A DNA stretch of 64,000 nt. Source: Ilex aquifolium (Eukaryota > Streptophyta > Magnoliopsida > Aquifoliales > Aquifoliaceae). The DNA lies in contig OX637392.1 in the NCBI GenBank assembly GCA_951799425.1, forward strand, positions 55,504,093 through 55,568,092. The letters run 5' to 3'. Position 1 is the first letter of the stretch, and each line of letters opens with the position of its first letter. Shown here in pieces: positions 1-28,712 of this stretch. A model generated the notes under the pieces. It did no database searches, was not told the DNA's origin, and was given only the letters and a program-made list of their open reading frames with translations. The translations under genes were made by a program, and so were the position numbers.

Positions 1-1966
1 TTACGAGCTTTTCAAGCAAGTAAAAATCAACATCCCACTTCTGGATGCAATCCAACAGGTTCCAGCTTATGCCAAGTTTCTAAAAGACTTGTGCACAGTC
101 AAAAGAAGCCAAAATGTTCAAAAAAGAGCCTTCCTCACAGAGCAAGCCAGTGCCCTACTTCAACACAAAATCCCTCCAAAGTGCGAAGATCCAGGGTGCC
201 CCACTGTGTCATGTGTCATTGGAAATTTCAAAATTGAGCAAGCATTGTTAGACCTTGGAGCTAGTGTCAACTTACTTCCTTTCTCTGTCTACCAGCAGTT
301 GGGTTTAGGTGAACTGAAACCCACTTGCACCACACTCCAATTGGCAGATAGATCTGTAAAAATTCCTAGGGGTATTGTTGAAGATGTACTTGTCCAAGTG
401 GATAATTTTGTCTTCCCTGTAGACTTCATTGTTCTAGATACTCATCCAGAAGTTCATTCAGAAACTCCAATTCCTGTCATTCTTGGTCGACCTTTTCTAG
501 CAACCTCCAATGCACTAATCAATTGCAGGAATGGTATTATGAAATTGACTTTTGGGGATATGACTCTCGAAATGAACGTCTTTGACATTGCAAAACACCC
601 AAGAGAGTACGAGGAGGTAGGAGAAATAAATTCCATTGAGTCATTGATACAAGCACATCTGAATGACTCATTCTGTGAGGATCTTAGTGAATCAACTTTG
701 TCAAAATCTGACTCATCTGACTCTCTGGAACAAAACTCCATTGAGTGCCCTACCTTCAATGTGGGGACATGGGCTCCTAAATTTGAAGAAATTTCATCAA
801 GTGGTACCAAACCACTATCTTCAAGTGACAGGCCACCAAAGCCTGAACTGAAACCGCTCCCATCTGATCTCAAGTATGCATTTTTAGGTGAGGATAAATC
901 TTACCCAGTGGTAATTTCTTCAAAAATCACAGACTTGCAAGAAGCTCAATTAATTGAAGTTCTTAAAAGTCACAAAAGCACCATTGGGTGGACCATCGCT
1001 GATTTGAAAGGTATTAGCCCGTTAATTTGTAATCATGCCATATACCTTGAAGAGGACTCAAAACCCTCTCGTCAAATGCAGCGACGATTGAATCCTCACA
1101 TGAAAGAGGTTGTGAGACTGGAAGTGCTCAAACTCCTGGATGCAGGGATAATTTTTCCTATCTCCGATAGCAAATGGGTTAGTCCAACCCAAGTTGTACC
1201 AAAGAAATCTGGAGTCACAGTAGTCAAAAATGATGCAAATGAACTCGTGCCAACACGAGTCGTCACAGGATGGCGAATGTGCATTGACTATTGAAAACTC
1301 AATCTGGTGACTAGAAAAGACCATTTTCCTCTTCCCTTCCTTGACCAAGTCCTCGAGAGAATAGCAGGCCCTGAATTTTACTGTTTCCTGGATGGGTATT
1401 CCGGATACAATCAAATTGAGATAGCTCTGAATGACCAAGAAAAGACCACATTCACATGTCCATTTGGCACCTTTGCATTCAAAAGGATGCCATTCGGACT
1501 TTGTAACGCTCCTGCAACATTTCAAAGATGTATGCTGAGCTTGTTCAGTGACATGGTCGAAAAATTTTTGGAAATCTTCATGGATGATTTCTCGGTATAT
1601 GGTGACTCATTTGATTTGTGTCTAGCTAACCTAGAAAAAGTTTTGATGAGATGCAAAGAGGCAAATCTGGTGCTTAACTGGGAGAAATGTCATTTCATGG
1701 TGAATCAAGGCATTGTCTTGGGTCACATTGTGTCGTCTGAAGGCATGAAAGTTGATAAAGCAAAAATTGATTTGATAAGAAATCTTCCTGCTCCTAGGGT
1801 TGTAAAGGATGTTCGATCATTCTTAGGTCATGCAGGATTCTACAGAAGGTTCATAAAAGACTTCAGCACCATAGCAAAACCTATGTGTCATCTTTTGAGT
1901 CAGGACGTCATTTTCGACTGGAATGAAGTGTGCCAAAAATCATTACTAGTCCCTAGTAATAAATAA
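1..1966 (+). pseudogene. pol: Left-arm pol fragment: protease and reverse transcriptase, broken
   Basis: This is one frame from the window edge to 1939 that then runs through nine foreign codons to a stop at 1964-1966. It encodes the end of gag, the aspartic protease (DLGAS at 251-265) and the reverse transcriptase with its FMDD catalytic motif at 1578-1589. A TGA at 1292-1294 interrupts the RT; the right-arm copy has CGA there, so this is a C-to-T change at a CpG. At 1939 the homology to RT/RNase H stops abruptly and segment X begins. Gag and the 5' LTR would lie outside the window. The copy cannot make full Pol. Confidence in identity is high. Confidence 0.93.
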
Positions 1967-2904
1967 CAGCATAACAAAATCACTTTCGTAGATAACACGA
2001 TTGCATTTAGCATATGCAATAAGCCGTTAAACCCCTAGGTGATTCCTAGTGGACGAGTTTTGTCTCGTGAAGGTTTTCAGTGAAGCTACCTACAAACTCC
2101 ATTTGAAAAAATGTGTATATGCTTTAGCACCATGATAGTTGAGACGCCGAATTTTTTTTTTTTTAGCAAAATAGAACACTTCTCTGTCATTGGTACGTAA
2201 TATATGCAAAAATAAACACTTGTTATATTGGTATTTGAAATTCCCTATGTAGTTAGAATGATCATTCTAGCAACAAGAATTGTTATATAAGAAACACTCC
2301 ATTTTACTACCTTCCATGGATAGCTTCGATTTCACAAACCTCTCGTAGAATGCTCTCAGCAAAAGTTCACTCCGATTATAGTGACTTAAATCTCTCACGG
2401 GGCATGTGATCAGAAGGTGGCCAATCGAAAAATCACATGCACAATTAGGAAGGGAGTGAAGTTTAAGGAAACAAACTAATCATGTTTGGCATAATCTCAT
2501 GAAGGAATATTGATGCAATTTAAAGAAATACTATTTACCATACCCCAATTTTGATTGACAACACACGCATGTAACAGACTTGAGATCAATTAGGGCTTTT
2601 CATAGGTTGTAGCGTGGCCAGAGGTCAGTGGCTAATGAAATGACGTCAATGATTTTCAAAAGCTATCCTTTCATTCTGTAATGTAACACACTTCTTTCTA
2701 GCTTTTCGACATTTTGCCCAGAAATGATTTCTTTTTTTTTTTTTCATTTGTTCCCATTGATTCTCCTTGTCATCGAAAAGTAATCTCCACAGTTTTCCCC
2801 ATTTCTTTGCATTTCTGTGTCATATTGATTTATAAGAATGTGCAAGAAAATTAGATAGCAATGGTGTGTCCAGTATGTTTTCTTGTGGCTTGGTAAATAT
2901 TTGG
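1940..2904 (+). other. Segment X (left copy), non-coding insert replacing RNase H
   Basis: About 965 bp with no sustained reading frame lies exactly between the RT end (…CQK) and the last part of RNase H ([13 protein letters not shown] begins about 2903). Relative to related Pol proteins roughly 100 codons of RNase H are missing, so X replaces sequence and is not a clean insertion. The same segment occurs inverted at 8328-9292. It holds poly-T tracts and a TTGAGACGCCG motif near 2140 that resembles the GAGACGCCAT motif ending the 3' repeats at 5638-7752. X may therefore derive from the retroelement's own 3' untranslated region; this is inference. Confidence 0.7.
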
Positions 2905-4528
2905 TTCTTCTGTTACTGTATTTACTGACCATGCAGCACTGAAATTTTTGCTTACAAAAAAAGATGCCAAACCAAGACTCTTGAGATGGATCCTTTTACT
3001 CCAAGAATTTGACTTAGTCATTAAGGACAAAAAGGGTGTGGAAAATGTGGTGGCAGATCATCTGTCAAGATTAACTTATGAATTTCATGAGGATGGACTG
3101 CCAATCAATGAAAAATTCCCCGATGAACAACTATTCAGGATTGATGAGACCCCATGGTACGCTGATATTGCTAATTTCATTGCTACCGGAACACTTCCTC
3201 CATTTTTCACTCCCATGGACAAAAAGAAGTTTCTGAGGGAGGTCCGCAATTTCTTTTGGGAAGATCCCTACGTATTCAAGTACTGTAAGGATCAGATCAT
3301 AAGACGTTGCATCCCCGCTCAGGAAAGTAGACAGGTAATAACATTTTGTCATTCAGAAGCATGCGGTGGTCATTTTTCATCTCGAAAAACCGCTGCAAAA
3401 ATCTTGCAGTGTGGATTTTACTGGCCCACACTTTTCCAAGATGTCCATGCTTTTTGCGTAACTTGCGATAGATGTCAAAGGTTGGGAAACATTTCAAAAA
3501 GAAACATGATGCCCTTAAACCCAATTTTGGTGATCGAAATTTTTGACTGTTGGGGTATCGATTTTATGGGACCATTTCCCTCCTCCTTTGGCTATCTATA
3601 CATTTTAGTAGCCATAGACTATGTATCCAAATGGGTTGAAGCAATTCCATGCCGAAATAATGATCATCAAACGGTGATCAAGTTTTTAAAAGAAAATATT
3701 TTATCTCGGTTTGGAATTCCAAAATCCATTATAAGTGATGGGGGTGCTCATTTTTGCAATCGTCCCTTCTGGAATTTAATGAAAAAATACTTGATTTTTC
3801 ACAAAATTGTAACCCCTTATCATCCACAGACCAGTGGACAAGCTGAGTTAGCTAATCGGGAGATCAAATTAATTTTGGAAAAAACGGTGAACCCAAATCG
3901 CAAAGATTGGTCATTAAGACTAACTGATGCGCTCTGGGCATACCGAACTGCTTTTAAAACAATTTTGGGCATGTCTCCCTATCGATTAGTCTATGGAAAG
4001 CCATGTCACTTGCCTGTGGAATTGGAACATAGGGCATACTGGGCTATTAAAGCAATGAATTTTGACTTAGACAAGGCTGGACTGTCACGGAAGCTTCAGA
4101 TTAATGAATTGGAGGAATTGAGAAATGAAGCATATGAAAATGCTAAGATTGCAAAAACCAGGATGAAAATTTTTCATGACAAGAACATAGTGCGAAAATC
4201 TTTTGAACCTGATCAAAAGGTTCTACTTTTCAATTCGAGACTTCGCCTATTTCCTGGTAAGTTGAAATCAAGATGGACTGGACCATACATTGTTAAAAAG
4301 GTATTTGAACATGGGGCAGTGGAAGTGGAGAACCCATCAAACGGTAACATTTTTACCGTCAATGGTCAGCGATTAAAACCCTTTGTGGAGAATTTTGTCC
4401 AAAATATGGAGACCATTTTTTTAATGGATCCAGAAAGTATCTCCGGAAATCACTCCGGAGATTACGCTTGCCGACACAAAAAAGGGTCGAGTCAATCAGA
4501 CACCCGACACGATGGACTGCCTTTATAA
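2905..4528 (+). CDS. pol (int): RNase H remnant plus intact retroviral-type integrase
   Basis: The frame is open from the junction with X to a stop at 4526-4528; the first ATG is at 2948. It opens with the end of RNase H ([18 protein letters not shown]). The zinc-binding HHCC domain follows ([10 protein letters not shown] ... CVTCDRCQ, about 3350-3480). The DDE core comes next: first Asp in [10 protein letters not shown], second in [10 protein letters not shown], Glu in [12 protein letters not shown] chromo-less C-terminal GPY-type region with RWTGPY sits near 4270. All catalytic residues are present. The protein would insert element cDNA. Without the RT part in frame it is a fragment, but it shows no stops or frameshifts, so it has been under constraint until recently. 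Confidence 0.9.
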
Positions 4529-4640
4529 GGCCCCCATCGTTTTTTTTTTCTTTTTTCTTTTCCCCACCGCCTTTACTCTTTTCTTTTCTTTTTCTTCTCT
4601 TTTCTTCTTCTTCTCCACTGCATCTGGTCTTCTGTACCAC
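4515..4640 (+). promoter_or_regulatory. TATA-like box and CT-rich leader of accessory module A
   Basis: The sequence TGCCTTTATAAGGCCCCC at about 4517 is followed by over 100 bases of almost pure C/T before the first small ORF. The same order (TGCCTTTATTAGGCC and a CT-rich leader) precedes module B at about 6178. A TATA-like motif with a pyrimidine leader could mark an internal promoter for the accessory ORFs. The match between copies is seen directly; promoter function is inferred. Confidence 0.4.
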
Positions 4641-4661
4641 GATCCAACCCATAACAGTACC

Positions 4662-4808
4662 ATGTCTGCATTTTTCGATGACCCTATCCTCCTTCTCATG
4701 ATCTACATTTGTTTGTATTATTTACTTATGGCTGTTCTTCTTCGGGCCGCACTGATGATCAAGGGTTTTTGTCCCAATGAAAACCCAGACCACCCCAAAG
4801 ATGCTTAA
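4662..4808 (+). CDS. Small one-helix membrane protein of accessory module A (48 aa)
   Basis: The family is not recognised. The ATG at 4662 opens 48 codons: a short acidic start (DDP at residues 6-8), one strongly hydrophobic stretch of about 25 residues containing CLYYLL, a basic step (MIKGF) and a polar tail with NPDHP. The start was chosen because the homologous ORF at 6339-6470 begins at the same place relative to DDP, although a longer frame opens at 4512. The protein would be a single-pass membrane peptide. It lies 134 bp after the integrase stop and upstream of the zinc-finger ORF. Conservation of DDP, CLY, GF and NPD between copies that differ outside the frame supports coding. Function is unknown. 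Confidence 0.5.
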   Translation: MSAFFDDPILLLMIYICLYYLLMAVLLRAALMIKGFCPNENPDHPKDA

Positions 4809-5128: not shown

Positions 5129-5539
5129 ATGGATGTAAATCTTTTTTGGTTTAGTCTAGGAGTCCTACGTACTTTTCCATCTGATGTACATACCATGATC
5201 ATGAGAAAAGCAAGATTAGTAAGGAAGGCTGAAATCAAATAAAAACAAGCGAAACCCCTCTGTGGCCGAAGTAGTTATTCTAAACGTCGTCGTGCTACAC
5301 GACTTGGTGCCTGTAAACAGTGTGGCAGATACTTTCATGAGAAAAGATACAACAAATGTTCTGAACCAATTTCCGGTCGCGTAACCGATCGATTAAACTG
5401 GATAGTGAATGGGCTGAGTAAGGATTACCCTGATACGCCATGCTATTCCGGTACTGTGCTTAACCGATTTATGAGAGAGGAAGTTGGGAGAGTTACTGGT
5501 TGTCCATTTTACACAGATACGGAGGGGGAATCGGATTGA
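5129..5539 (+). pseudogene. Viral NABP-like zinc-finger ORF, copy A, one in-frame stop
   Basis: This is homologous to the ORF at 7011-7436 along its whole length. From the ATG at 5129 the frame holds 136 codons to the TGA at 5537-5539, with no frameshift but one internal TAA at 5240-5242 (codon 38). An arginine-rich stretch (SKRRRATR) is followed by Cys-X2-Cys-X4-His-X6-Cys, all preserved, as is the C-terminal block DRLNWIV and GLSKDYPDTP. A single nonsense change in an otherwise intact frame points to recent inactivation, or to a short 37-residue product. Its resemblance to flexuous-virus cysteine-rich proteins is described at copy B. Confidence 0.65.
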
Positions 5540-6338
5540 CCTCTGTGGAAAAGTGTACTGAGGTTGGGAATGAAAGCTGAAGGTTCGAGTCTGTAAAAAA
5601 TTGTTCTGTACAAACTCTTTTGACTAAAATGAAAACATGGGCAGAGTAAGTAACATCCCGAACTACCAACTAACAGTGTAGGTAGAGATTTGTTCTGAGA
5701 CGCCATGACTTTTGGCTTAAGATTGTTTATTTTGATTCCTTTTAGTATGCATAATGTAGTGTAGAAAAAATTTTAATTTTTGATTCGATGTTCGAACGTT
5801 ACAACACGTTTGAACGTTTTTGCTAAAATCCTTCTACAATAGTGTACAGTTGCTTTTATTTATTAATGTTCTTTTTAATGCATGTCACTTTCTTTTGTTG
5901 TATAGTTTTGTTGTTCCTAGTTTCAGATATCGGTGCATGAGTCAAAGCTCAAGTGCGAGGTGTTCTCTTACCCTACTCATTTTTATTACTATGCACCATT
6001 ATTGCGCCTGCTGCCATTATTGCGCCTGCCGACACTGCCGAAAAAAAAAAAAAAAAAAAAAGGGGGCGGGCCTCCCACTGCCTTTCTTCTTCTTTTTTCT
6101 TTTCTTCTGCCTGTCAGCTTCTGCCGACACTTTCTTATCTTAAAAGGTGAAAAAAAAAAAAAAAAAATCTGAGGAATGCCTTTATTAGGCCTTCCACCTT
6201 TTTCTTTTTCTTCCACCATCACCGGTTTTGGTTCCCCCCTTTCTCTTTCCCTTTTCTTCTTCTCCTTCTTTTTCTTCTCTTCTTCTTCGTCGTCGTTCTT
6301 TCTGTTCTCTGTAAAAACAACTCACCCCCTGTAAATCC

Positions 6339-6470
6339 ATGACCATATACGCCGACGATCCAGTCTTTTGTTTAATAATTTGTCTTATATGTTTGTATTT
6401 GTACCTGGGTGCTCTTTTTGTTCTCACACTTAGGATGAGGGGTTTCCAGAGAAACCCAGATATTCCTTGA
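6339..6470 (+). CDS. Small one-helix membrane protein of accessory module B (43 aa)
   Basis: This is the counterpart of the 48-residue ORF at 4662. The ATG at 6339 opens 43 codons with DDP at residues 6-8, a Cys/Leu-rich hydrophobic helix (residues about 9-31, including CLICLYLYL), a basic LRMRGF junction and a short NPDIP tail. The frame is intact. Shortly downstream (about 6490-6500) a pyrimidine-rich TTGTTTGTAG looks like a splice acceptor, and the same place in copy A has TTTTTTGGTATAG. The pair may therefore be joined to downstream sequence by splicing. The family is not recognised; a membrane-anchored accessory role is inferred only from hydrophobicity. Confidence 0.5.
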   Translation: MTIYADDPVFCLIICLICLYLYLGALFVLTLRMRGFQRNPDIP

Positions 6471-7010
6471 GTTGAGTAATTGTTGTATTTTGTTTGTAGG
6501 TTTCGGCAGATGAACAGATCTGTACCTTACAACCTTATCTCCACTAGCCCACTAGTGCTAGTGTTGTAAGTATTGCTTGTTTGTAATTTCATTTATATAT
6601 ATATTTGAAATTTGATATCTACAGCTTGTGATTCTCATGGCTATTTGTCTTTATAAAATTCCTTGTGAATTTGCTATGCCCTCCAATGACTATGCTGTAA
6701 TTGCTGTTACAGTAAGATCTGATAATTTGCCAAATAATCCCCCTAAATCCTTTGTATTCTGGGTTTATTCCTTCTTCGTTAATTTGTTTGTTTCATCCTA
6801 AATCTTCTTCCTTCCGCTTGTATTTTGATATACTTTCTCTAGTTTCGTATTTGTAATTTTAGTTTTAGATCTAAAAAAAAAAAAAAAAATTTATTTTTAT
6901 TCTGGATTGCGTTTTTTTTTTTTTTTAGTATTTGTACCTGTATTTCATGATCACATCGGATGCAGCTTCAACTGTCTTTGTGACTGGCAGACGTTAAAGA
7001 ACCAGATAGA

Positions 7011-7436
7011 ATGTCTTTAGTCTTAGCAAGCATGGATCCTAAACTTTTTTGGTTTAGTCTAGGAGTTCTACGCATTTTCCCATCTGATGTGCATGCTGTG
7101 ATAATGAGAAAAACAAGGGATGTGAGAAAAATTGAGATCCGAGAGAAACAACAACAACCATTGTGTGGCAGAAGCAATTTTGCTAAACGTCGTCGTTCCA
7201 AACGACTGGGTGCTTGTTACCATTGTGGCAGGATATTTCATATGAAAAAACATAATCAGTGTTCTGAACCAATTTCGGGTCGTGCAACCGATCGATTAAA
7301 CTGGATAGTGTATGGGCTGAGTAAGGATTATCCTGACACACCATCTTATGCCAGTCCGGGACTTACAAGTTATGTGCGACAAGAAGTTGGAAGGGTCACT
7401 GATAATGACATAGATCCAAGCGATGACTCGGATTAG
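7011..7436 (+). CDS. Basic zinc-finger protein resembling flexuous-virus NABP, copy B (141 aa)
   Basis: The open frame has 141 codons; the second Met (residue 8, nt 7032) aligns with the start of copy A and may be the true one. Seen features are an N-terminal SLGVL segment, an arginine-rich patch (KRRRSKR, residues 59-65), then Cys69-X2-Cys72-X4-His77-X6-Cys84, a conserved middle (DRLNWIVYGLSKDYP) and an acidic tail. The order basic patch, LGxC, CGR is what I know from the cysteine-rich nucleic-acid-binding proteins of carlaviruses and vitiviruses, which bind RNA and often counter silencing. It could instead be a retroelement zinc knuckle, but the Cys/His spacing is not the gag CX2CX4HX4C. 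It sits downstream of integrase and a membrane ORF. Homology to the viral family is a hypothesis. Confidence 0.55.
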   Translation: MSLVLASMDPKLFWFSLGVLRIFPSDVHAVIMRKTRDVRKIEIREKQQQPLCGRSNFAKRRRSKRLGACYHCGRIFHMKKHNQCSEPISGRATDRLNWIVYGLSKDYPDTPSYASPGLTSYVRQEVGRVTDNDIDPSDDSD

Positions 7437-7547: not shown

Positions 7548-7811
7548 TGTGGGCCGAGTAAGGAACGTCCCGAACTACCAACTAACAGTGTAGGTAGGGA
7601 TTTGATCCTGAGACGCCATAAATTTCCAAGTTCAAGTTGTGCATTTTATCTTCTTTCAATTTTCATAGATAAATGAGTATGTGGGCTGAGTAAGGAATGT
7701 CCTAAAATGCCAACCTGTAGTGTGGGTAGGGATTTTATCCTGAGACGCCATAGTTTTTCAAGTTTAATTGGTGCATCTAGTCTTCTTTCAATTTTCATAG
7801 ATAAATGAGTA
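7548..7811 (+). repeat. Two tandem copies of a 131-bp 3' repeat, with a third at 5636-5706
   Basis: The unit begins TGGGC(C/T)GAGTAAGGAA, carries GTGTAGGTAGGGAT and ends TCCTGAGACGCCAT followed by a T-rich half ending TTCATAGATAAATGAGTATG. It occurs at about 7550-7680 and 7681-7811; the first half also follows copy A at 5638-5706. Each follows a zinc-finger ORF, so it looks like a 3' untranslated repeat. Regulatory function is unknown. Confidence 0.7.
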
Positions 7812-8327
7812 TGTTTATAATTTTGAATTTTATTTCTTCTTCTTTAAAAAAAAAAAAAAAAAACTCACTTCCTTGAAAAATAGTATTTTCTCTATGCTTA
7901 AATGTCAAATGTATATTGCTATTTGTTATTCTTAAGGTACAGAATGACCAGACTCGAAAATAGAATTGGTATATAACCGACATTCCATGAAAAACCTGAC
8001 ATTACCAGTGGAGATGATAAAGAATACCATGGTAAGTTTTGAGCCTTATCATACTTTTGAGAGATAATTAATATTTATTCAAGTAAGGTCTTTCACTCTC
8101 TATTTTTGAATAATCTCATTAAATTTGCTTTGATTGATGCAATTAAGGTAATCTGTTGACATATCCCCAAGAAATCTGTTCATACGACACATACATGTTC
8201 ACATACTTGAGAAAGGATTTTAGGCCATCTTTGATTTGATATTGAGCCTTAGCCATTTTTTCTGCAAAATTATTTCCCTAGTCAGCCATGTTTGAGCCCT
8301 CAATGTATGATTTCTTCTTTGATAAAC
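7812..8327. other. Unassigned non-coding part of the element centre
   Basis: No credible gene is visible. The stretch is A/T-rich with an 18-base poly-A at about 7847 and then ordinary mixed sequence up to the right-arm boundary at 8328. Read on the minus strand it continues directly from segment X and may be 3' untranslated sequence of the right-arm element. I see no LTR end in it. Confidence 0.4.
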
Positions 8328-9292
8328 CCAAATATTTACCAAGCCACAAGAAAACATACTGGACACACCATTGCTATCTAATTTTCTTGCACATTCTTAT
8401 AAATCAATATGACACAGAAATGCAAAGAAATGGGGAAAACTGTGGAGATTACTTTTCGATGACAAGGAGAATCAATGGGAACAAATGAAAAAAAAAAAAA
8501 GAAATCATTTCTGGGCAAAATGTCGAAAAGCTAGAAAGAAGTGTGTTACATTACAGAATGAAAGGATAGCTTTTGAAAATCATTGACGTCATTTCATTAG
8601 CCACTGACCTCTGGCCACGCTACAACCTATGAAAAGCCCTAATTGATCTCAAGTCTGTTACATGCGTGTGTTGTCAATCAAAATTGGGGTATGGTAAATA
8701 GTATTTCTTTAAATTGCATCAATATTCCTTCATGAGATTATGCCAAACATGATTAGTTTGTTTCCTTAAACTTCACTCCCTTCCTAATTGTGCATGTGAT
8801 TTTTCGATTGGCCACCTTCTGATCACATGCCCCGTGAGAGATTTAAGTCACTATAATCGGAGTGAACTTTTGCTGAGAGCATTCTACGAGAGGTTTGTGA
8901 AATCGAAGCTATCCATGGAAGGTAGTAAAATAGAGTGTTTCTTATATAACAATTCTTGTTGCTAGAATGATCATTCTAACTACATAGGGAATTTCAAATA
9001 CCAATATAACAAGTGTTTATTTTTGCATATATTACGTACCAATGACAGAGAAGTGTTCTATTTTGCTAAAAAAAAAAAAATTCGGCGTCTCAACTATCAT
9101 GGTGCTAAAGCATATACACATTTTTTCAAATGGAGTTTGTAGGTAGCTTCACTGAAAACCTTCACGAGACAAAACTCGTCCACTAGGAATCACCTAGGGG
9201 TTTAACGGCTTATTGCATATGCTAAATGCAATCGTGTTATCTACGAAAGTGATTTTGTTATGCTGTTATTTATTACTAGGGACTAGTAATGA
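8328..9292 (-). other. Segment X (right copy)
   Basis: This is the reverse complement of 1940-2904, including the exact junction with the reverse transcriptase (mirror position 9293) and the short-range poly-A/T differences expected of old homopolymers. At its inner end the two copies share AAATATTTGG and then diverge. Left continues into RNase H; right continues into unrelated A/T-rich DNA. Substitutions are few. Confidence 0.8.
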
Positions 9293-12200
9293 TTTTTGGC
9301 ACGCTTCATTCCAGTCGAAAATGACGTCCTGACTCAAAAGATGACACATAGGTTTTGCTATGGTGCTGAAGTCTTTTATGAACCTTCTGTAGAATCCTGC
9401 ATGACCTAAGAATGATCGAACATCCTTTACAACCCTAGGAGCAGGAAGATTTCTTATCAAATCAATTTTTGCTTTATCAACTTTCATGCCTTCAGACGAC
9501 ACAATGTGACCCAAGACAATGCCTTGATTCACCATGAAATGACATTTCTCCCAGTTAAGCACCAGATTTGCCTCTTTGCATCTCATCAAAACTTTTTCTA
9601 GGTTAGCTAGACACAAATCAAATGAGTCACCATATACCGAGAAATCATCCATGAAGATTTCCAAAAATTTTTCGACCATGTCACTGAACAAGCTCAGCAT
9701 ACATCTTTGAAATGTTGCAGGAGCGTTACAAAGTCCGAATGGCATCCTTTTGAATGCAAAGGTGCCAAATGGACATGTGAATGTGGTCTTTTCTTGGTCA
9801 TTCAGAGCTATCTCAATTTGATTGTATCCGGAATACCCATCCAGGAAACAGTAAAATTCAGGGCCTGCTATTCTCTCGAGGACTTGGTCAAGGAAGGGAA
9901 GAGGAAAATGGTCTTTTCTAGTCACCAGATTGAGTTTTCGATAGTCAATGCACATTCGCCATCCTGTGACGACTCGTGTTGGCACGAGTTCATTTGCATC
10001 ATTTTTTACTACTGTGACTCCAGATTTCTTTGGTACAACTTGGGTTGGACTAACCCATTTGCTATCGGAGATAGGAAAAATTATCCCTGCATCCAGGAGT
10101 TTGAGCACTTCCAGTCTCACAACCTCTTTCATGTGAGGATTCAATCGTCGCTGCATTTGACGAGAGGGTTTTGAGTCCTCTTCAAGGTATATGGCATGAT
10201 TACAAATTAACGGGCTAATACCTTTCAAATCAGCGATGGTCCACCCAATGGTGCTTTTGTGACTTTTAAGAACTTCAATTAATTGAGCTTCTTGCAAGTC
10301 TGTGATTTTTGAAGAAATTACCACTGGGTAAGATTTATCCTCACCTAAAAATGCATACTTGAGATCAGATGGGAGCGGTTTCAGTTCAGGCTTTGGTGGC
10401 CTGTCACTTGAAGATAGTGGTTTGGTACCACTTGATGAAATTTCTTCAAATTTAGGAGCCCATGTCCCCACATTGAAGGTAGGGCACTCAATGGAGTTTT
10501 GTTCCAGAGAGTCAGATGAGTCAGATTTTGACAAAGTTGATTCACTAAGATCCTCACAGAATGAGTCATTCAGATGTGCTTGTATCAATGACTCAATGGA
10601 ATTTATTTCTCCTACCTCCTCGTACTCTCTTGGGTGTTTTGCAATGTCAAAGACGTTCATTTCGAGAGTCATATCCCCAAAAGTCAATTTCATAATACCA
10701 TTCCTGCAATTGATTAGTGCATTGGAGGTTGCTAGAAAAGGTCGACCAAGAATGACAGGAATTGGAGTTTCTGAATGAACTTCTGGATGAGTATCTAGAA
10801 CAATGAAGTCTACAGGGAAGACAAAATTATCCACTTGGACAAGTACATCTTCAACAATACCCCTAGGAATTTTTACAGATCTATCTGCCAATTGGAGTGT
10901 GGTGCAAGTGGGTTTCAGTTCACCTAAACCCAACTGCTGGTAGACAGAGAAAGGAAGTAAGTTGACACTAGCTCCAAGGTCTAACAATGCTTGCTCAATT
11001 TTGAAATTTTCAATGACACATGACACAGTGGGGCACCCTGGATCTTCGCACTTTGGAGGGATTTTGTGTTGAAGTAGGGCACTGGCTTGCTCTGTGAGGA
11101 AGGCTCTTTTTTGAACATTTTGGCTTCTTTTGACTGTGCACAAGTCTTTTAGAAACTTGGCATAAGCTGGAACCTGTTGGATTGCATCCAGAAGTGGGAT
11201 GTTGATTTTTACTTGCTTGAAAAGCTCGTAAATTTCAGACTGATTGTTTGCTTTCTGTATGCTCTTGAGTCTATGAGGGAAAGGAGCAGGAATAGAACAC
11301 GAGGGTTCTTCTTCCCTTGATGGCTCTGGTTCTTGTTCAATCATGGGATCACAGTCATTTTTTGTTGCAAGTTCTGGCTCACTTAATGGGTTGGCTGGAA
11401 TTGAGTCTGGTTTTGGGTCTGGAATTAGCATGTTTCTGATGGACTTGTCAATCTTTTTGCCACTTCTCAATGTGGTGACAATTTTGGCTTGGTCTTGTGG
11501 AGTTTCCATAGTTGATGGATTTCCCACCTGAAATTGGCCTTGTGGAGGCTTTGGTTGGGCAGGAAATTTTCCCTTCTCATGTGTGCTCATGGACTGGGTC
11601 AGCTTTTGAATGTGGCCTTTGAGATCCTCAAAAGATTGTGTGGTCTGGGCCTTGAAATCAATAAAAGCCTGAGTAGAACTATTGTTATAGCTCATTTGGG
11701 TTTGCATGAATTGATTCAATGTATCTTCAAGGCTCCTTTTGTGTGGTGGTTGATATGGAGGATATTGTGGAGGTACTTGAGGTGGATGTGGTGGCCCTTG
11801 TTGATGAGGATATTGTGGAGGTCCTTGAGGTGGTTGTTGTGGACCTTGTTGCTGATTCATGGGGGTTGGTTGTGTGTTTCTCCAACTGAAATTTGGGCGG
11901 TTCCGCCACCCTGGATTGTATGTTTCAGAGTATGGGTTGGAGTAAGGCTTGTTGAAATTGGAAATGACATTTGTTTGTTCCAACAAAACTTCTTTGAATG
12001 CCGGTATGGTCGGGCATTCCCCAGTAGGATGCCTTGTTAGCGCACAAATCCCACACACTTGTTCTGTGGGAGGGACAACATCAACTTGATGGACCTTTTT
12101 CATCTCTAAAGCTTCAAGCTTTCGAGACAAAGTGGACATTTTTGCTCTAAGATCATCATCTTCTCTCAAGACATACTTACCCCCTTGGAAAGTAGGTGGT

Positions 12201-13009
12201 TTGGCTTCTACAGTGGTAGGAGATGCTGAGTCCCACATTTGAGAACTGTCAGATATGGTATCAAAAAAATTAAATGCGTCCTCCGAACTTTTTCCCATGA
12301 ACTCTCCTTGAGCCATCATTTCGACAAACTGTCGTAACCTAGTGGGCAAGGAATCATAGAAAAAACCTGCCAAAGTCCAATTTTCAAAAGCATGGTGTGG
12401 ACAAGATTGGAGAAGATCTTTGAATCTCTCCCAGCTTTGATAAAAAGTTTCCCCTTCTTTGACCGAAAAATTCATGATTTGTCTTTTGAGTGTATTAGTG
12501 CGGTGCAGAGGAAAGAATTTTCTGAAAAATTCATTCTGTAGAGCCTGCCAATTAGGGATTGAAAGAGATTTTAAAGAATGTAACCATTGTTTGGCTTTAT
12601 CCCTCAAAGAGAAAGAAAACAATTTCATTTTTGTCAATTCAGAATTGTCTTGAAATGTTCCACACACTTCTTCGAAGTCTTTGATATGCAGATACGGATT
12701 TTCTGCATCCAATCCATGAAACACGGGCAATAACTGCACTGTCCCCGACTTTACAGTAAAGAGGGGAGCATTTTCAGGAAAAATAAAACAAGAGGGGACA
12801 CTATTCCTTGTGGGATGTAAGTAATCTCGCAATGTTCGAATGTTGGGTACTTCCCCCTCTCTCACATGATCTTCACCCTGCCTATCAATATTTGCCATAT
12901 TGAAGTTACAAGAGTCGGCTTCTGATTTGGGTGAAGGTGGTTCAAGTTGATTTACAGACCCAGAAGATTCAGCAGGCAAATTTGGATAGAGGCGATTGGT
13001 GTCAGTCAT
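9266..13009 (-). CDS. gag-pol: Athila gag-protease-reverse transcriptase polyprotein, 3' truncated
   Basis: The 1247-codon frame runs from the ATG at 13009 (MTDTNRLYPN; an upstream in-frame ATG at 13087 lies in the A/T leader) to a stop inside segment X. In order it shows a retrotransposon gag capsid (about 12800-12300; LFSFSLRDKAKQWL), a gag CCHC knuckle CX2CX4HX4C at 12014-12055, a Pro/Gln-rich linker, an aspartic protease (DLGAS at 10967-10981) and a reverse transcriptase with FMDD at 9643-9654. RNase H is cut off after CQK at 9293 and integrase is absent on this strand. The frame has no internal stops, unlike the left arm. It could make capsid, protease and RT but needs integrase in trans. 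The same position in the left arm differs by G/E and A/V changes. Confidence 0.93.
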   Translation of the reverse strand: MTDTNRLYPNLPAESSGSVNQLEPPSPKSEADSCNFNMANIDRQGEDHVREGEVPNIRTLRDYLHPTRNSVPSCFIFPENAPLFTVKSGTVQLLPVFHGLDAENPYLHIKDFEEVCGTFQDNSELTKMKLFSFSLRDKAKQWLHSLKSLSIPNWQALQNEFFRKFFPLHRTNTLKRQIMNFSVKEGETFYQSWERFKDLLQSCPHHAFENWTLAGFFYDSLPTRLRQFVEMMAQGEFMGKSSEDAFNFFDTISDSSQMWDSASPTTVEAKPPTFQGGKYVLREDDDLRAKMSTLSRKLEALEMKKVHQVDVVPPTEQVCGICALTRHPTGECPTIPAFKEVLLEQTNVISNFNKPYSNPYSETYNPGWRNRPNFSWRNTQPTPMNQQQGPQQPPQGPPQYPHQQGPPHPPQVPPQYPPYQPPHKRSLEDTLNQFMQTQMSYNNSSTQAFIDFKAQTTQSFEDLKGHIQKLTQSMSTHEKGKFPAQPKPPQGQFQVGNPSTMETPQDQAKIVTTLRSGKKIDKSIRNMLIPDPKPDSIPANPLSEPELATKNDCDPMIEQEPEPSREEEPSCSIPAPFPHRLKSIQKANNQSEIYELFKQVKINIPLLDAIQQVPAYAKFLKDLCTVKRSQNVQKRAFLTEQASALLQHKIPPKCEDPGCPTVSCVIENFKIEQALLDLGASVNLLPFSVYQQLGLGELKPTCTTLQLADRSVKIPRGIVEDVLVQVDNFVFPVDFIVLDTHPEVHSETPIPVILGRPFLATSNALINCRNGIMKLTFGDMTLEMNVFDIAKHPREYEEVGEINSIESLIQAHLNDSFCEDLSESTLSKSDSSDSLEQNSIECPTFNVGTWAPKFEEISSSGTKPLSSSDRPPKPELKPLPSDLKYAFLGEDKSYPVVISSKITDLQEAQLIEVLKSHKSTIGWTIADLKGISPLICNHAIYLEEDSKPSRQMQRRLNPHMKEVVRLEVLKLLDAGIIFPISDSKWVSPTQVVPKKSGVTVVKNDANELVPTRVVTGWRMCIDYRKLNLVTRKDHFPLPFLDQVLERIAGPEFYCFLDGYSGYNQIEIALNDQEKTTFTCPFGTFAFKRMPFGLCNAPATFQRCMLSLFSDMVEKFLEIFMDDFSVYGDSFDLCLANLEKVLMRCKEANLVLNWEKCHFMVNQGIVLGHIVSSEGMKVDKAKIDLIRNLPAPRVVKDVRSFLGHAGFYRRFIKDFSTIAKPMCHLLSQDVIFDWNEACQKSLLVPSNK
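11740..11880 (-). repeat. Pro/Gln/His-rich coding repeat in gag linker
   Basis: Imperfect repeats of QQGPQQPPQGPPQYP type in the gag-protease linker are encoded by GGTGG/TTG-rich codons. Low-complexity linkers of this sort are usual in Athila gag and need not be conserved. The antisense frames here are artefacts. Confidence 0.6.
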
Positions 13010-13116
13010 AAAAAAAAAAAAAAAATTATTCACAATAAGGCAAAAATATACACAAAAAGAGAGGTTTTTTTTTTTTTTTTTTTTCACCTTTTTCTAAAAA
13101 GAGCACCTTTTATGAT

Positions 13117-13134
13117 TCCCCGGCAACGGCGCCA
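13117..13134 (-). other. Primer binding site, tRNA-Asp
   Basis: The plus strand reads TCCCCGGCAACGGCGCCA, the last 18 bases of plant tRNA-Asp(GUC) including CCA. The element RNA (minus strand) therefore carries the complementary TGGCGCCGTTGCCGGGGA six bases inside the LTR end at 13141. This is the minus-strand primer site used by Athila elements. It fixes element direction and the LTR inner boundary. Confidence 0.9.
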
Positions 13135-14054
13135 AAAACTTGGCTTGATCCGAAATGTGTACACCCAAGTGCAGGCGGTCAAGTTGTAGTAATAATCTGG
13201 TTTGAGTCCAGAGTCGAATCCTCAGGGAACTATGGTTGGTGTTCTTTGAAGTAAATAGTGAGAAAGACTTGTAACTGGAAATATTATGATTTTGAAGTTG
13301 TGGGAAGTTTTGGATAGAATGTAAAATTCTTTCCAATGGGTATTTTTCTAGACAAAATATAAGATGATTAAATGTAACAAACACTCTTTGGTTCGGGAAT
13401 CAGAATATGTAGTTGATTATCCGGTGCATTATGTTTATGCTTTATAACTCAATTAACTCCCGTGTCAACGGCAAATTAATCGGAAGATAGGAATGAAGTG
13501 CAATAATGGTGGACATTGAAAGTTTGTCATGAAGAGTTAGTTAGGGTACTTGCCTTGAATCAATGGATCTTTCCATGTAGGAGTCATCCATTTATCATAG
13601 AAAGATCCGTTGATTATACAAAGTACCTTTACTTTGCTAGGTGCAATCAATCACCCAAAAATCAAGTGGAGTATAGAACATTTAAGCATAAAGGTGATAC
13701 ACAAACATAATGTCCGGATTAATCTTTTACATATCTATCATCCCTTCCCAAAGAGTGAATGAGGACTACTCACCCTTCATAGCTATGGTAAAGCTAGAAT
13801 GATGAATGGTACTCATCCCCAAAAGGTGTTACAAAGTAAAATGTTCAAGCACTAGAAGTGAAATGCTTTAAAGTAAAATAGCTAAACAAGGAGCCGATCT
13901 TCGACAAAGAATGAGTGAATCATGTTCCACCCTTCACGGCTTTGGTAAAGCTCTAGAAAAGTGGAAGAGTTTCACTCCTCTAAGGGGAAGAAGGAAGCTC
14001 CAACAATGGAAGTAAAAGAAAACAATACTTAAATTAAAAGAAAGCAATAAATAC

Positions 14055-14250
14055 TTGGTGTTTAATCCACAACCAAGAGATGATAATACATAAAAGAAAA
14101 CAACAACTTCTTGGTGTTTAATCCACAACCAAGATATAATAAAAACATAAAAGAAAACAATAACTTCTTGGTGTTTAATTCACAACCAAGATCTAATAAA
14201 AAGAAAACAACAACTTCTTGGTGTTTAATTCACAACCAAGATCTAATAAA
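14055..14250 (-). repeat. Tandem repeat around ACTTCTTGGTGTTTAAT in the LTR
   Basis: Four imperfect units of about 55 bp repeat the phrases TTGGTGTTTAATxCACAACCAAGA and AAAGAAAACAA. They lie within the transcribed part of the LTR, downstream of the TATA box. Confidence 0.7.
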
Positions 14251-14411
14251 AAGAAAACAATAACTCAAGAAAATAAATAAAGTAATAATACTTGAAAGAT
14301 GATTCAAGAAAAAGATTCAAGACCTTTGGAGTGTTTTCCACTAGGAAGAAATGTTCTTTACAAGAAAAATGAAACAAGAGAAGGATGCCCATTACAAGCC
14401 CCCAAGGGGGG

Positions 14412-14419
14412 TATTTATA
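14412..14419 (-). promoter_or_regulatory. TATA box of the retroelement LTR
   Basis: TATAAATA on the minus strand is preceded by the U3 repeat array and followed by a G/C-rich stretch (CCCCCCTTGGGGG), the usual layout of a plant LTR promoter. Transcription would run leftward through gag-pol. Confidence 0.7.
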
Positions 14420-14429
14420 GGCATCCAAA

Positions 14430-14610
14430 TTACAAATATCCTAAAAGATATTTATCCTAAAATATATTTAATTACAAATATCCTAAAAGATATTTATCCT
14501 AAAAGATATTTAATTACAAATATCCTAAAAGATATTTATCCTAAAAGATATTTAATTACAAATATCCTAAAATATATTTAAATACAAATATCCTAAAAGA
14601 TATTTATTTA
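14430..14610 (-). repeat. U3 enhancer-like array, 42-bp units with AAATATCT cores
   Basis: Units starting ATTACAAATATCC at 14471, 14513 and 14555 are exactly 42 bp apart. On the minus strand they give six copies of AAATATCT plus two variants, directly upstream of the TATA box. AAATATCT is eight of nine bases of the plant evening element AAAATATCT bound by clock MYB factors. The array is seen; clock or cold control is inference. Confidence 0.7.
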
Positions 14611-14883
14611 CAAATATCAAGAAGATCTTGATTTACACTTTGATCTCCCTTTGTTTTGAGCTTTAATAATTTATACCCTATGCTTTGATAAGTTGCTCTC
14701 CATTCTTTGATAATTGGCTCCCGTCGTTTTGATGCATAAAAACCTGAAAAGAACAACATTCAATGCATTATCCTTAATTCACACATTAACCCTAATTAGA
14801 TTTATTTTGACTATTTTAACTTTATTTAATTACACAATTGACCTTTTAATTTAATTACATTTTGCATTAATTAGGGTTAATCA

Positions 14884-15074
14884 CGTAACATGCACGAGGG
14901 GTGACCAGGAATAGAATATGACATATGTACTGACAAGTTAAACAACTCCTCCCACGTCTCGCAAACTTCGCGAACAAGTTCCGATATATTTGAATTACCA
15001 CCTACTTTGAATATTTTAGTAGCATTACCATATGAACATAACAGCAACACCGTTTCCTCCATTGCCAACAACAT
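14884..15074 (-). pseudogene. Exon resembling MULE transposase N-terminus, cut by the LTR
   Basis: After an acceptor-like TGTTAG the ATG at 15074 opens a frame (residues VLLLCSYG, FKVGGNSNISELVREVCE, LSVHMSYSIPGHPSCMLRD) that ends where the LTR begins. The layout of a short beta-strand start with CSYG, a GG segment and a mid-domain YxIPG resembles the N-terminal domain of plant Mutator-like transposase genes. I am only moderately sure. The frame is open to its last base and in the same orientation as the retroelement. The rest of the gene should lie on the far side of the element, outside the window. Confidence 0.45.
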
Positions 15075-21438: not shown

Positions 21439-24400
21439 TAATAGGTGAATGTATTGAAATCAGTCTTATCAGAACCGGCTCGGATCAAATCACTTTTTTA
21501 ACATTGTATTATACTTTTTAATTGATGAAAATGTGATATGTGTATTTTTTTATTGTTTTATTATTTTTTTTCAATCAATATTTCATGTCATTCAATTCAA
21601 AATTGATGACGGATATTAATGACGATACAATACTTGTTTCGATATTGTTGTTTCTTAACCTACGGTGTTAAATTGAACTCCATGCACACATAAGTGAGAA
21701 TCGTGTAATTTGGATTTGTTGGGAATCGTAAAACATATTGTGGAAGCGTAAAATTAAAGACATGTCTTATTCGCTTTAATCTTAAAAATCGTTTGAGGAT
21801 ATTCCACTTATCTTAGAATCCAAATCAACGTATTTTCTTTAATTGCCCGAGCAGCATGGTGTTGTTACATAAGACGGATCAACACCAGATTTTCTACATC
21901 ACAAAAACCTTACAAATGTTAGGTAGGGAGAGAGAGAAGCGAGTAAGAGAGTTTTAACGTTAGGATAAATTATCAATGATACCTCATCTGTTGCATTGCT
22001 TTGGGTTTATATATACAACTAACGAGTGTCATCAAAAGACACATCCTATAGTGACATGTATTTTGGGTGGTAAAGAATACCTCCAAAAGATATGTTCATT
22101 TGGACATTCTTTAATTTGGATTGACCTATCATAGGCGCCCCGGTTTGAGTCCATGATTCAATCAATATCTATCATGATTCAATCAAGTCACATCACAAGG
22201 GAGTTAATATAGATAATGTTGGCCGAATCATGACCATACACTCTTTATCGTTGCGATTGTATAAGGAATTTCATCCTTTGGGTAGTCGTTTAGACCCACC
22301 CAAAAAAAAAACAACATTATGATTGCAATATTTTTCATACATTCTGATACAATCAGTATTGTACAACAAGGGTATGTTTATTAGGGGGATTGATATTCAT
22401 GAGATTGGTTAATGTATTCTATATACTTTTAATATTGAGAGGAGTTAATACCGATAATAAAAATGAATGCAATCTCATTTTATATTTGTTTGAATAATAT
22501 GTTTTATTGTGGGACCCATCAAAAAACATATATTTTGTCGTATCTCATATAACAAATAGACATTTTTGCCTCCAATATCATCCATTCCATTCCTTGGAAG
22601 GGATAGTATAGTAATTAGGCTGCCTTCTACCTTCGGTGTCCCTTCTCCCGCCTTTTAATACCACTTCCCAGGTGGTATTAGATATACCCATGTAGATGGG
22701 TTTAGCACCAATGTTTATTCCGAGTTGGTATTAGGATCCGAAAATTAGTATTTTACTAAAAATGGTTAATAAACAAAGTATATGGGAGACTCATGTATTA
22801 ATAAATATTGTCATACCTCTTTATATCCCACTTATCCTCCAAACAAATACACCCAAAGAGAATGGCTTTGACATTTTGAGTTACATGGTTGATCAACATG
22901 GGATTATAAATTCGTTGATTATAGCTTGACAATGAATTTATAGACGGGTTCAAATTGAACTTAGGTTGAGAATGTTATAACTTACATTAAATTCTAATTG
23001 ACTTTTCAATCCGTCCAACCCACCAAAAGTGCACCCCCTTGTACATTATGGTGCTGCACAGGTACACATACATACAAAAATAGGAGAAAAGAGATCCTAT
23101 AATTTACAGGTAGAAAGTGGTTTGACTCAAAAGGCAAATCCACCACAAAGGTCTGTTTATTTTAACTCCTTGGTAAACTTTCCACCTTGTTTGGTATCTT
23201 TGTTGGTATGCCAGTAAAGAAGATTGATTGTTTTATTAGTTGAGGTGCGTGTAAATTTGTTTGAACACATTTGATTGTTAAATAAAAAAAAAAAATTGCG
23301 GTATTAATAACATAATAATCAAAGGCCACCCACGACACTATTGAAGAAGTGCTTGTTACTAGCAAGACACCAACAAGTGGGTCATGCTTAATTCTGGCTC
23401 AAAACCACTCCAACGGAATGAAAATTGATAACCTTATAATCATTCCTAATTGTACTCTTGGTTGGACTTGTTCTACCACTAGTTTGGTAGTTGTCAATTA
23501 TGTGTATTCTTCCTCTACGCGACAACATCAATGTTTTAAAGTAATAGATATTATGTAAACTAGATTAAATAACATAATGAGTAATTAATGACTAATAGCT
23601 TGATTGATTATATAGAGAAACACTATAGTATCTTTTATACAGTTAGTCTCATTTATTGTAAAGGGTTGTAATTAGTCTTTTTTTTTTGTTTTTTATTTGT
23701 ATACTTTATACTTATCGACGCTTGATAATTTTTCTATTTTATGAATCTTGAAGTATCAAATACAATGCCGTAAATTTAAATATATTATTTTATTTTTATT
23801 GATTTAGAGAAAAAAATTTAAAGTTTCTGATTAAAGTGCCCCACCCTAAACAGAATTTTTGGCTGCCACTGCTATCATGGTTTAAAGTTACAAAAATCAC
23901 ATCTCCATATACGAGGTTAAAGCATAGTACAATTGCCTCTCCCTAAATCTTGCAATGGTAGGAGCCTCAAGCAATGTCTTTTTTATGTTTATATTGCATT
24001 CTCAACATGCTTAGTTTTTCCTTGAACTTCTTGAGTCATGAAAACAGACATTTCTTTATGCATAATTTCAGAGTTTTTATGTTCAGCATTGATCACTTTC
24101 CTCTACAATAGTTCAAGACTTGGTCTAAGATGAAGATTTAAACTTGGTAGAAATTATATAAATGTCTCACCCTTTTTTTAGTCAAACCAAACAAGATTTA
24201 GAATTTACAAAGGAAATTAAACAATGGAGGTCGGCCTTAGAGTGATGACAAATGATCGTCATAAGTTTGAATCCGAACAGAACTTCATCAAGTAATAAAA
24301 AAGAGTGCATAGGCTACCTCATAGTATATTTTCTCTCGACACAATTTCATTAATGTTTTAGCCTTATCCAGACGCATCATCACAAAAAATATTTGTTTAT

Positions 24401-26270: not shown

Positions 26271-27273
26271 AGGTGAATGTATTGAAATCAGTCTTATCAG
26301 AAACGGCTCGGATCAAATCACTTTTTCAACATTGTATTATACTTTTTAATCGATGAAAATGTGATATGTGTATTTTTTTATTGTTTTCTTATTTGTTTTC
26401 AATCAATTTTTCATATCATTCAATTCAAAATTGATGACCGATATCAATGACGGTACAATACTGATTTCGATATTGTTGTTTCTTAACCTATGATGTTAAA
26501 TTAGACTTCATGGACACAACAGTGAGAATCGTATAATTTGGATTTGTTGGGAATCGTAGGATTAAAGACATACTTTATTCTCTTTAATCCTAAAAATCGT
26601 TTGAGGATATTCCACGTACTTTAGAATACAAATCAACGTCTTTTCTTTAATTGCTCAAGCAGTATGGTGTTGCAACATAAGATTAATCAACACCAGATTT
26701 TTCACAGCATAAAAACCTTACAAATGTTATGTAAGGAGAGAGAGAAGCGAGTAAGAGAGTTTTAACATTAGGATGAATTATCAATGATAGCTCATCTATT
26801 GGATTGTCTTGGGTTTATATAAGCAATCAATGAGTGTCATCAAAAGACATATCCTATAAAGACATGTCTGTTAATATTTAATAGACATGTATTTTAGGTG
26901 GTAAAGAACACATTCAAAAGATATGTCCTTTTGGACATTCTTTAATTTGAGTTGACCCGCCATAAACGCTTTGGTTTGGGTTCATGACCCAACCAATATC
27001 TAACAAGATTCAATCGAGTCACATCACAAGGGAGTTAATGTAGATAATGTTGGCCGAATCATGACCATACACTCTTTATCGTTGCGATTGTATTAGGAAT
27101 TTCATCCTTTGGGTAGTCGTTTATACCCACCAAAAAAAAAAAACATTATGAAGGGTGGTTTGAATTCTAGAAACCTTTATTAATTACTTCTCTCTTCCTA
27201 AGACATTATGTCAGTACTTAATCAGTATTGTACAACAAGGGGTATGTTTATTAGGGGGATTGATATTCATGAG

Positions 27274-28649: not shown

Positions 28650-28712
28650 TTATTAGTCGAAGTGCGTGTAAATTTGTCTAGACATTTTTAACTGTTAAAT
28701 AAAAAAAAAAGA
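28650..28712 (+). repeat. Truncated SINE 3' tail shared by the duplicated units
   Basis: TTAGTCGAAGTGCGTGTAA followed by a short C/A-rich part and AACTGTTAAAT then poly-A matches the last 70 bp of the SINE at 52218-52434. Copies also occur at 23225-23292 and (without tail) 31545-31585. The internal promoter part is absent. Confidence 0.6.

What the first reader, a model, noticed from the sequence alone, without database searches (positions are those of the whole stretch)
5129..7436. Virus-like nucleic-acid-binding protein gene carried inside a retrotransposon
Two homologous ORFs downstream of an Athila integrase encode a basic patch (KRRRSKR) and Cys-X2-Cys-X4-His-X6-Cys in the order LGxC…CGR. 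That arrangement matches the cysteine-rich NABPs of carla-/vitivirus-type RNA viruses, which act in RNA binding and silencing suppression. The frame is preserved between copies whose non-coding flanks have diverged. If homology is real, a retrotransposon has acquired a possible silencing suppressor from an RNA virus. I cannot tell whether this has been described.
Basis: partly seen in the sequence, partly recalled or inferred. Interest (0 to 1): 0.92.

Follow-up and report, generated by a model that had tools for sequence, protein, structure and literature searches.

The report
Virus-type gene inside plant retrotransposon family
A very common jumping element in this plant genome carries two copies of a gene otherwise known from plant RNA viruses, where its relatives bind RNA and can block the host's RNA-silencing defence; natural selection has kept the gene, so the element probably uses it.

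Summary
The homology is real. The product of window 7032-7436 scores above Pfam cut-offs for Viral_NABP (PF05515; E 1.1e-12 with the 141-aa start, 3.9e-12 for 134 aa) and Carla_C4; no zf-CCHC model matched. Apart from unnamed plant/metagenome ORFs, its relatives are flexivirus NABPs. The gene belongs to an Athila-like Ty3/gypsy LTR element: gag-pol, integrase, small membrane peptide, NABP1, NABP2, PPT, LTR. In the window's own 800-Mb genome 150 of 150 scored NABP2 matches (top-ranked, so biased) are open at 98-100% identity. A second family carries a diverged NABP beside an 82%-identical integrase. Between subfamilies dN/dS is about 0.25, ML omega 0.237: purifying selection. The window's NABP1 has a stop, but 9 of 10 fetched full copies are open. 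'Diverged flanks' holds only beyond about 60 bp upstream. Untested: RNA binding, silencing suppression, expression. Direction of transfer is unresolved: related ORFs occur in Populus, Xanthoceras and Orobanche and the tree is unrooted. Ten open-access searches found no report of it; subscription papers, preprints and supplements were not seen.

The parts
7032..7436 (+). NABP2, intact 134-aa gene (alternative upstream ATG at 7011)
   Evidence: Pfam PF05515 E 3.9e-12 and PF01623 1.1e-5 for the 134-aa form, 1.1e-12 and 1.2e-5 for the 141-aa form; 150 of 150 scored genomic matches open
5129..5539 (+). NABP1, 136-codon paralogue; this copy broken by TAA at codon 38 (5240-5242)
   Evidence: open in 9 of 10 full-length NABP1 among L009-L020; open copy L009 hits PF05515 8.1e-11
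4662..4808 (+). TM1, 48-aa hydrophobic (single membrane span) peptide upstream of NABP1; the ORF opens at 4512
   Evidence: TM1-TM2 dN/dS 0.37; no Pfam match for the 4512-4805 ORF
6339..6470 (+). TM2, 43-aa homologue of TM1 upstream of NABP2
2948..4528 (+). integrase ORF
   Evidence: Pfam rve 1.5e-15, Integrase_H2C2 8.1e-13
9266..13087 (-). gag-protease-RT ORF of the inverted half of the element
   Evidence: Pfam Retrotrans_gag 3.5e-16, Asp_protease_2 3.6e-5, RVT_1 4.9e-26
13117..13134 (-). primer-binding site TGGCGCCGTTGCCGGGGA (complementarity to tRNA-Asp is recalled, not tested)
13141..14885 (-). 5' LTR of the inverted half (about 1.75 kb), homologous to the 3' LTRs of fetched copies; boundaries set by comparison with them
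7600..8327 (+). 3' tail without long ORF, follows NABP2 in 12 of 12 loci L009-L020
8328..9284 (+). last internal segment before PPT and 3' LTR in normal copies; here joined to inverted RT, and duplicated in reverse at 1948-2904

Best explanation
NABP1 and NABP2 are resident accessory genes of an Athila-like Ty3/gypsy LTR retrotransposon, in the place where other such elements have an env-like gene. They are true homologues of the nucleic-acid-binding (cysteine-rich) proteins of flexiviruses: predicted N-terminal helices, a basic KRRRxKR patch, one CCHC-type zinc motif and a conserved DRLxWIxxGxSK segment. They are under purifying selection, and each is preceded by a small membrane peptide, so the pair was probably duplicated as a module. 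Inferred: the element RNA expresses them (by splicing or downstream initiation); the basic patch and zinc motif bind RNA; and, as for viral relatives, this blunts host RNA silencing of the element. Shown: homology, position, copy number, constraint. Inferred: expression, binding, suppression. Not resolved: whether an RNA virus gave the gene to the element.
For: Pfam hits above cut-off for NABP2, NABP1, family B and a diverged NABP1-type copy. Profile search: Grapevine virus A RNA-binding protein E 2.2e-7, Carrot vitivirus 1 7.3e-3; hhalign probability 98.1, 73 columns; BLASTP 44% over 63. Foldseek/BFVD: 21 of the top 24 hits bear flexivirus names, best E 1.4e-4, 32% over 129 columns. LTR architecture in insertions with different flanks. 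Copy number. dN/dS between subfamilies 0.25-0.27, within NABP1 0.21, within B 0.25; omega 0.237. NABP dN between families A and B 0.38 against 0.116-0.118 for integrase: fast-evolving but constrained. Viral relatives: GVA p10 binds RNA through its arginine-rich motif and suppresses silencing (PMC9104223, passages); several flexivirus CRPs are silencing suppressors (PMC12172455, passages).
Against: No expression or activity data. AlphaFold model weak (pLDDT 69.3, pTM 0.36); Foldseek TM-scores 0.19-0.34 in the top 24, two hits at E<=0.001. CVB p12 is called only a weak suppressor and also a transcription factor. Among young NABP2 copies dN/dS is 0.46 (dS 0.019). Immediate flanks are as conserved as the ORF. 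Integrase without internal stop in 6 of 10 of the same loci, so openness of NABP alone is no sign of special upkeep.
Confidence: 0.55

Rival explanations
1. Same gene and homology, different job: a nucleic-acid chaperone, nuclear import/export factor or activator of LTR transcription rather than a silencing suppressor.
For: A flexivirus relative (CVB p12) acts as a transcription factor (PMC12172455 passages). Basic patch plus zinc motif suits nuclear nucleic-acid work (inference).
Against: NABP changes about three times faster than integrase in amino acids, more like a host-facing protein; viral relatives repeatedly act on silencing. The gag-pol ORF has a CCHC-like string by eye (CGICALTRHPTGEC), though no zf-CCHC Pfam match, so a second chaperone may not be needed.
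Confidence: 0.3
2. Reverse direction: the gene was native to plant retroelements (or plants) and RNA viruses took their NABP from them.
For: Non-viral NABP-like ORFs form three separated groups (Athila type, 129-138 aa, 182 aa) and the two viral rows fall among them in an unrooted tree. Populus, Xanthoceras and Orobanche assemblies carry the 182-aa type.
Against: Only two viral sequences could be placed, with long branches flagged by the program. Viral NABPs occur in many flexivirus genera (titles), an equally wide spread.
Confidence: 0.35
3. Chance: convergent zinc knuckle plus basic patch, no common ancestry with viral NABPs.
For: Short protein; weak ribosomal eL37/eL43 look-alikes exist (E 0.13 and above; 0.094).
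Against: Curated cut-offs exceeded over 98-109 residues, not only the knuckle; hhalign probability 98.1 with a collinear DRLxW/F...ETP segment; no zf-CCHC hit.
Confidence: 0.03
4. Passive passenger: a viral cDNA insertion carried along without function.
For: The window's NABP1 has a stop; NABP2-NABP2 dN/dS 0.46 among young copies.
Against: dN/dS about 0.25 over dS 0.8-1.5 and presence in two families whose integrases differ by 18%; two diverged paralogues both mostly open.
Confidence: 0.04

Closest known systems
Viral_NABP / Carla_C4 proteins of flexiviruses (vitivirus p10, carlavirus CRP, trichovirus/prunevirus NABP)
   Same: [quoted passage not shown] collinear match over about 100 residues; above Pfam cut-offs
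   Different: Carried by an LTR retrotransposon, two paralogues per element, no virus genes seen beside it; GVA p10 spacing is C-X-C-X4-H-X4-C against C-X2-C-X4-H-X6-C here
Sense additional ORFs (aORF-3S / env-like) of Athila and other plant LTR retrotransposons (PMC7264820, parts 1-2 of 3 read)
   Same: Between pol and 3' LTR, sense strand, kept in most fetched copies; a small membrane peptide is present
   Different: No large env-like ORF; has an identifiable viral homologue, whereas that review notes a lack of similarity to other TEs or viruses (said there of antisense aORFs)
Insect retroelements with viral SF1 helicase domains (PMC6338049 passages; PMC4686597 and PMC5563155 search listing only)
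   Same: Retroelement carrying a protein of plus-strand RNA virus type, with proposed silencing-suppressor use
   Different: Other protein, other hosts, fused to the element polyprotein rather than a separate gene
Orchid Ty3/gypsy elements with an AlkB m6A demethylase (PMC9289625, section 12 read plus passages)
   Same: Plant gypsy element with an added RNA-acting gene of a kind also found in flexiviruses
   Different: Different gene. That screen of 121 angiosperm genomes names nine of its 15 extra domains in the section read and NABP is not among them (figures and supplements not seen)

Membership tests
Pfam Viral_NABP PF05515 | Whole-protein score above curated cut-off (23 bits) | tested here: met
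   48.9 bits (141 aa) and 47.1 (134 aa) NABP2; 42.7 NABP1, 46.1 family B, 35.8 L046; 150 of 150 scored genomic matches over cut-off, 3 with an internal stop
Pfam Carla_C4 PF01623 | Score above cut-off (20.9 bits) | tested here: met
   25.6 and 25.7 bits; 25.2-26.7 for three further element copies
Flexivirus NABP (functional sense) | RNA binding / silencing suppression | not testable with these tools
   no experiment possible; inferred from homology
LTR retrotransposon, Ty3/gypsy order | LTRs, PBS, gag, PR-RT-INT order, PPT | tested here: met
   Pfam gag, PR, RT, integrase; order and 3' LTR in fetched copies; PBS in the window and PPT in seven loci. No single fetched stretch spans a whole element, and both LTRs of one copy were not compared
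Athila lineage | Lineage by RT/INT phylogeny against reference elements | not tested
Athila env-like gene | Large env-like/ATHILA ORF between pol and 3' LTR | tested here: not met
   window copy only: no ORF over 141 aa between integrase end and 8400, none of 90 aa or more from 8400 to the RT ORF at 9266; ORF 4512-4808 has no Pfam match
Retroviral zinc knuckle (zf-CCHC) | Match to the zf-CCHC model | tested here: not met
   absent from the Pfam list at E<=10; only zf-C2HC_2 at 0.035, below its cut-off
Endogenous viral element of a flexivirus | Lone virus insertion outside a retroelement, or other virus genes beside it | tested here: not met
   for the window gene: inside the LTR element. For the genome: 6 of 150 scored matches to the Grapevine virus A protein were fetched, and all 6 lie beside integrase, tail or LTR pieces of this element type; the other 144 were not inspected

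The most novel reading that the evidence does not exclude
A whole clade of plant gypsy retrotransposons encodes its own RNA-silencing suppressor, homologous to the flexivirus NABP, kept as a duplicated two-gene module and amplified to hundreds of copies; gene exchange linked these retroelements and plus-strand RNA viruses in one direction or the other.
Probability: 0.4. Interest if true: 0.92.

Novelty: new variant of a known kind. Interest (0 to 1): 0.76.

Why it matters
Plant transposons are held down by small-RNA silencing, and whether they carry anti-silencing genes is an open question (general knowledge). Here is a defined, selected gene whose viral homologues include reported suppressors, so the idea can be tested directly. 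It also ties retroelements to the origin of a flexivirus pathogenicity factor, and it means that plant-genome ORFs matching viral NABP may be retrotransposon genes rather than virus remnants or contamination.

Tried and rejected
Rejected: chance zinc knuckle; retroviral-type knuckle; single degenerate virus insertion; NABP1 as a pseudogene fixed in the family; structured RNA in the conserved flanks (z-scores -1.59 to 0.04 for five stretches; five Rfam matches at E<=1, all below their gathering scores). 'The two copies come from two elements' was rejected: 10 of 12 fetched loci L009-L020 hold both in one element.

Led nowhere: four viral-contig scans found no relative; one genome-contig scan none; phage records none; solved structures only weak eL37/eL43. 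More viral NABP sequences could not be obtained, so direction of transfer could not be tested. Neighbourhoods of the metagenome and Populus/Orobanche/Xanthoceras proteins could not be read, so whether those ORFs lie in retroelements is unknown. Ten paper searches were answered (two were about the viral proteins), and no listing or passage that I saw reports NABP in a plant retroelement; subscription papers, preprints and supplements were not searched, and most listed papers were not opened.

Dropped rows: dN/dS used only complete open ORFs found by motif and start pattern (52 ORFs, 32 different); broken copies, the window NABP1 and the open L018 NABP1 (missed by the start pattern) are not in it.

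Full report
OBSERVATION. The window holds an integrase ORF (2948-4528; Pfam rve and Integrase_H2C2) followed by two homologous units (5129-5539 and 7032-7436; 664-column repeat at 75.9%). The first is broken by TAA at codon 38 in this copy. The flanks next to the ORFs are about 80% identical in aligned columns, slightly more than the ORFs (75%); only the region beyond about 60 bp upstream has lost similarity (45%).

HOMOLOGY. Pfam-A: Viral_NABP E 1.1e-12 (residues 5-113 of the 141-aa form) and Carla_C4 1.2e-5, both above curated cut-offs; no zf-CCHC at E<=10. The paralogue NABP1 (L009), a second-family copy (L031) and a diverged NABP1-type copy (L046) also pass. A database search found ten proteins at 64-89% identity. 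A profile search gave 29, among them Grapevine virus A RNA-binding protein (E 2.2e-7) and Carrot vitivirus 1 (7.3e-3). Profile-profile comparison with these two viral proteins: probability 98.1 over 73 columns, covering basic patch, zinc motif and the following DRLxWI...ETP segment. AlphaFold gave a low-confidence model (pLDDT 69.3, pTM 0.36). Foldseek against viral models returned 38 hits; of the top 24, 21 bear flexivirus names (family assignment recalled), two have no name and one is Citrus tristeza virus p23. Only two pass E 0.001 (a prunevirus 1.4e-4, Cherry mottle leaf virus 8.4e-4), TM-scores are low, and ranks 25-38 are unrelated viruses or unnamed at E 3.7-9.7. The alignment behind the model included the two viral proteins, so this supports but is not independent.

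WHERE IT SITS. Twelve longer stretches of the window's own genome, picked from the list, show the layout: integrase, 43-48-aa hydrophobic peptide, NABP1, spacer, peptide, NABP2, tail, a roughly 957-bp last segment, GGTTGGGGGG tract, LTR of about 1.75-1.9 kb. Integrase and NABP1 lie upstream of NABP2 in 10 of the 12; L010 begins at NABP2 and L017 holds four tandem NABP2 modules. Of seven loci whose LTR ends were read, six have different DNA beyond the LTR and the seventh, L009, continues into the next element: independent insertions. The window copy is rearranged: 1-2904 and 8328-11231 are an inverted duplication, and about 255 bp of the RT-integrase interval are missing (43 nt against 298 in L014).

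HOW COMMON. The genome search scores only the 150 best candidates. NABP2: 150 of 150 open, 98-100% identity, 4096 candidates. A second type, 73-86% identical to P0011: 150 scored; many are open, the frequent single stop at query residue 135 is that family's own end (its complete ORFs are 134 aa), and some have further stops. PF05515: 150 of 150 over cut-off, 3 with an internal stop; 0 of 14 control genomes rang, but the controls are unnamed and may hold no plant. Top ranking biases these towards open copies. NABP1 was not selected for in L009-L020: 9 of 10 full copies run open from ATG to codon 136. In the same loci integrase has no stop in 6 of 10 matches, 4 of 7 full-length; it is four times longer, so this is no evidence that NABP is better kept.

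SELECTION. From 52 complete open ORFs (32 different): NABP1-NABP2 dS 0.80, dN 0.21, ratio 0.27; NABP1-B and NABP2-B 0.25 at dS about 1.5; within NABP1 0.21; within B 0.25; within the young NABP2 set 0.46 at dS 0.019. Codon-model omega 0.237. Codon-position differences for one NABP1/NABP2 pair are 32/22/49 of 134 each. Family B lies downstream of an integrase 82% identical to the window's in 2 of its 12 loci (L030, L038); in 6 others a gag-pol piece lies upstream instead, i.e. pol-deleted derivatives; 4 show neither. Integrase dN between A and B is 0.116-0.118 with saturated dS against 0.38 for NABP: NABP changes about three times faster. The membrane peptide looks constrained too: ten pairwise ratios, eight of 0.37-0.54, one 0.76, one 0.21.

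RELATIVES AND DIRECTION. The third profile search found 511 proteins at E<=1 (120 listed), including a 182-aa type in Populus, Xanthoceras and Orobanche assemblies annotated only as hypothetical. Its query alignment already held two viral and one 182-aa row. The own genome has no close copy of the 182-aa type: best matches to P0095 are 31-37% over the core, and the eight fetched are NABP1-type. The tree of 39 rows separates Athila-type NABPs (94/94), the 182-aa group (100/100), a 129-138-aa group (96/85) and the two viruses (98/94). It is unrooted, warns of long branches and cannot say who gave the gene to whom. NABP2 groups with P0001/P0003 and NABP1 with P0008, so the duplication is older than the split from those sources, whose species are unknown. 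The Grapevine virus A protein gave 150 scored matches in the own genome; the six fetched lie beside pieces of this same element type; the other 144 were not inspected.

MECHANISM. Shown: homologous gene, element location, amplification, constraint. Inferred: RNA binding by basic patch and zinc motif, and suppression of RNA silencing, from viral relatives: GVA p10 is described as RNA-binding and silencing-suppressing (PMC9104223, passages), several flexivirus CRPs as suppressors, CVB p12 as weak suppressor and transcription factor (PMC12172455, passages). A chaperone or LTR-activator role is the main rival. Nothing here shows that the gene is transcribed.

KNOWN OR NEW. [quoted passage not shown] A domain screen of 121 angiosperm genomes does not name it in section 12, and a term search of its main text found no NABP or Carla (PMC9289625). 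The Retand survey (PMC11963269), the sunflower study (PMC11728184), the plant EVE study (PMC3136472; it reports a flexivirus replicase-like sequence in cucumber) and a TE/viral-domain study (PMC12062965) were seen as passages only and show none. Viral helicases in insect retroelements are a precedent (PMC6338049, passages). The novelty claim rests on these open-access looks alone.

Noticed in passing
window 1-2904 and 8328-11231: Inverted duplication at 99.8% inside one retroelement: RT joined to the reversed last internal segment, about 255 bp before integrase lost; could be aberrant self-integration or an assembly artefact.
   Followed up: partly
G000:C2:23936061-23960542: Seventeen NABP matches at about 1518-bp spacing: a satellite-like tandem array made from an NABP module.
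   Followed up: no
L017:1192-8896: Four NABP2-tail modules in tandem, period about 2134-2139 bp, none with an internal stop.
   Followed up: partly
L050:1564-1932: An NABP2 gene carrying the NABP1-type stretch SSYSKRRRATRLG: a mosaic, suggesting exchange between the paralogues.
   Followed up: no
L029, L031, L036, L037, L039, L040: Second-family copies with a gag-pol piece upstream of NABP in place of integrase: pol-deleted derivatives that keep the NABP ORF.
   Followed up: partly
window 4662-4808 and 6339-6470: Unnamed 43-48-aa hydrophobic peptide precedes each NABP; homologues precede NABP1-type genes in L043, L045 and L046.
   Followed up: partly
window 41032-43083 (-): 683-aa ORF of L-type lectin receptor kinase type (Lectin_legB plus protein kinase).
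   Followed up: no
window 21439-35630: Locally duplicated blocks of direct repeats, two to three copies, mostly 87-100% and some 68-73% identical, not identified.
   Followed up: no
window 38685-39504: Nested inverted repeats forming a large palindrome (I2-I5), possibly a foldback element.
   Followed up: no
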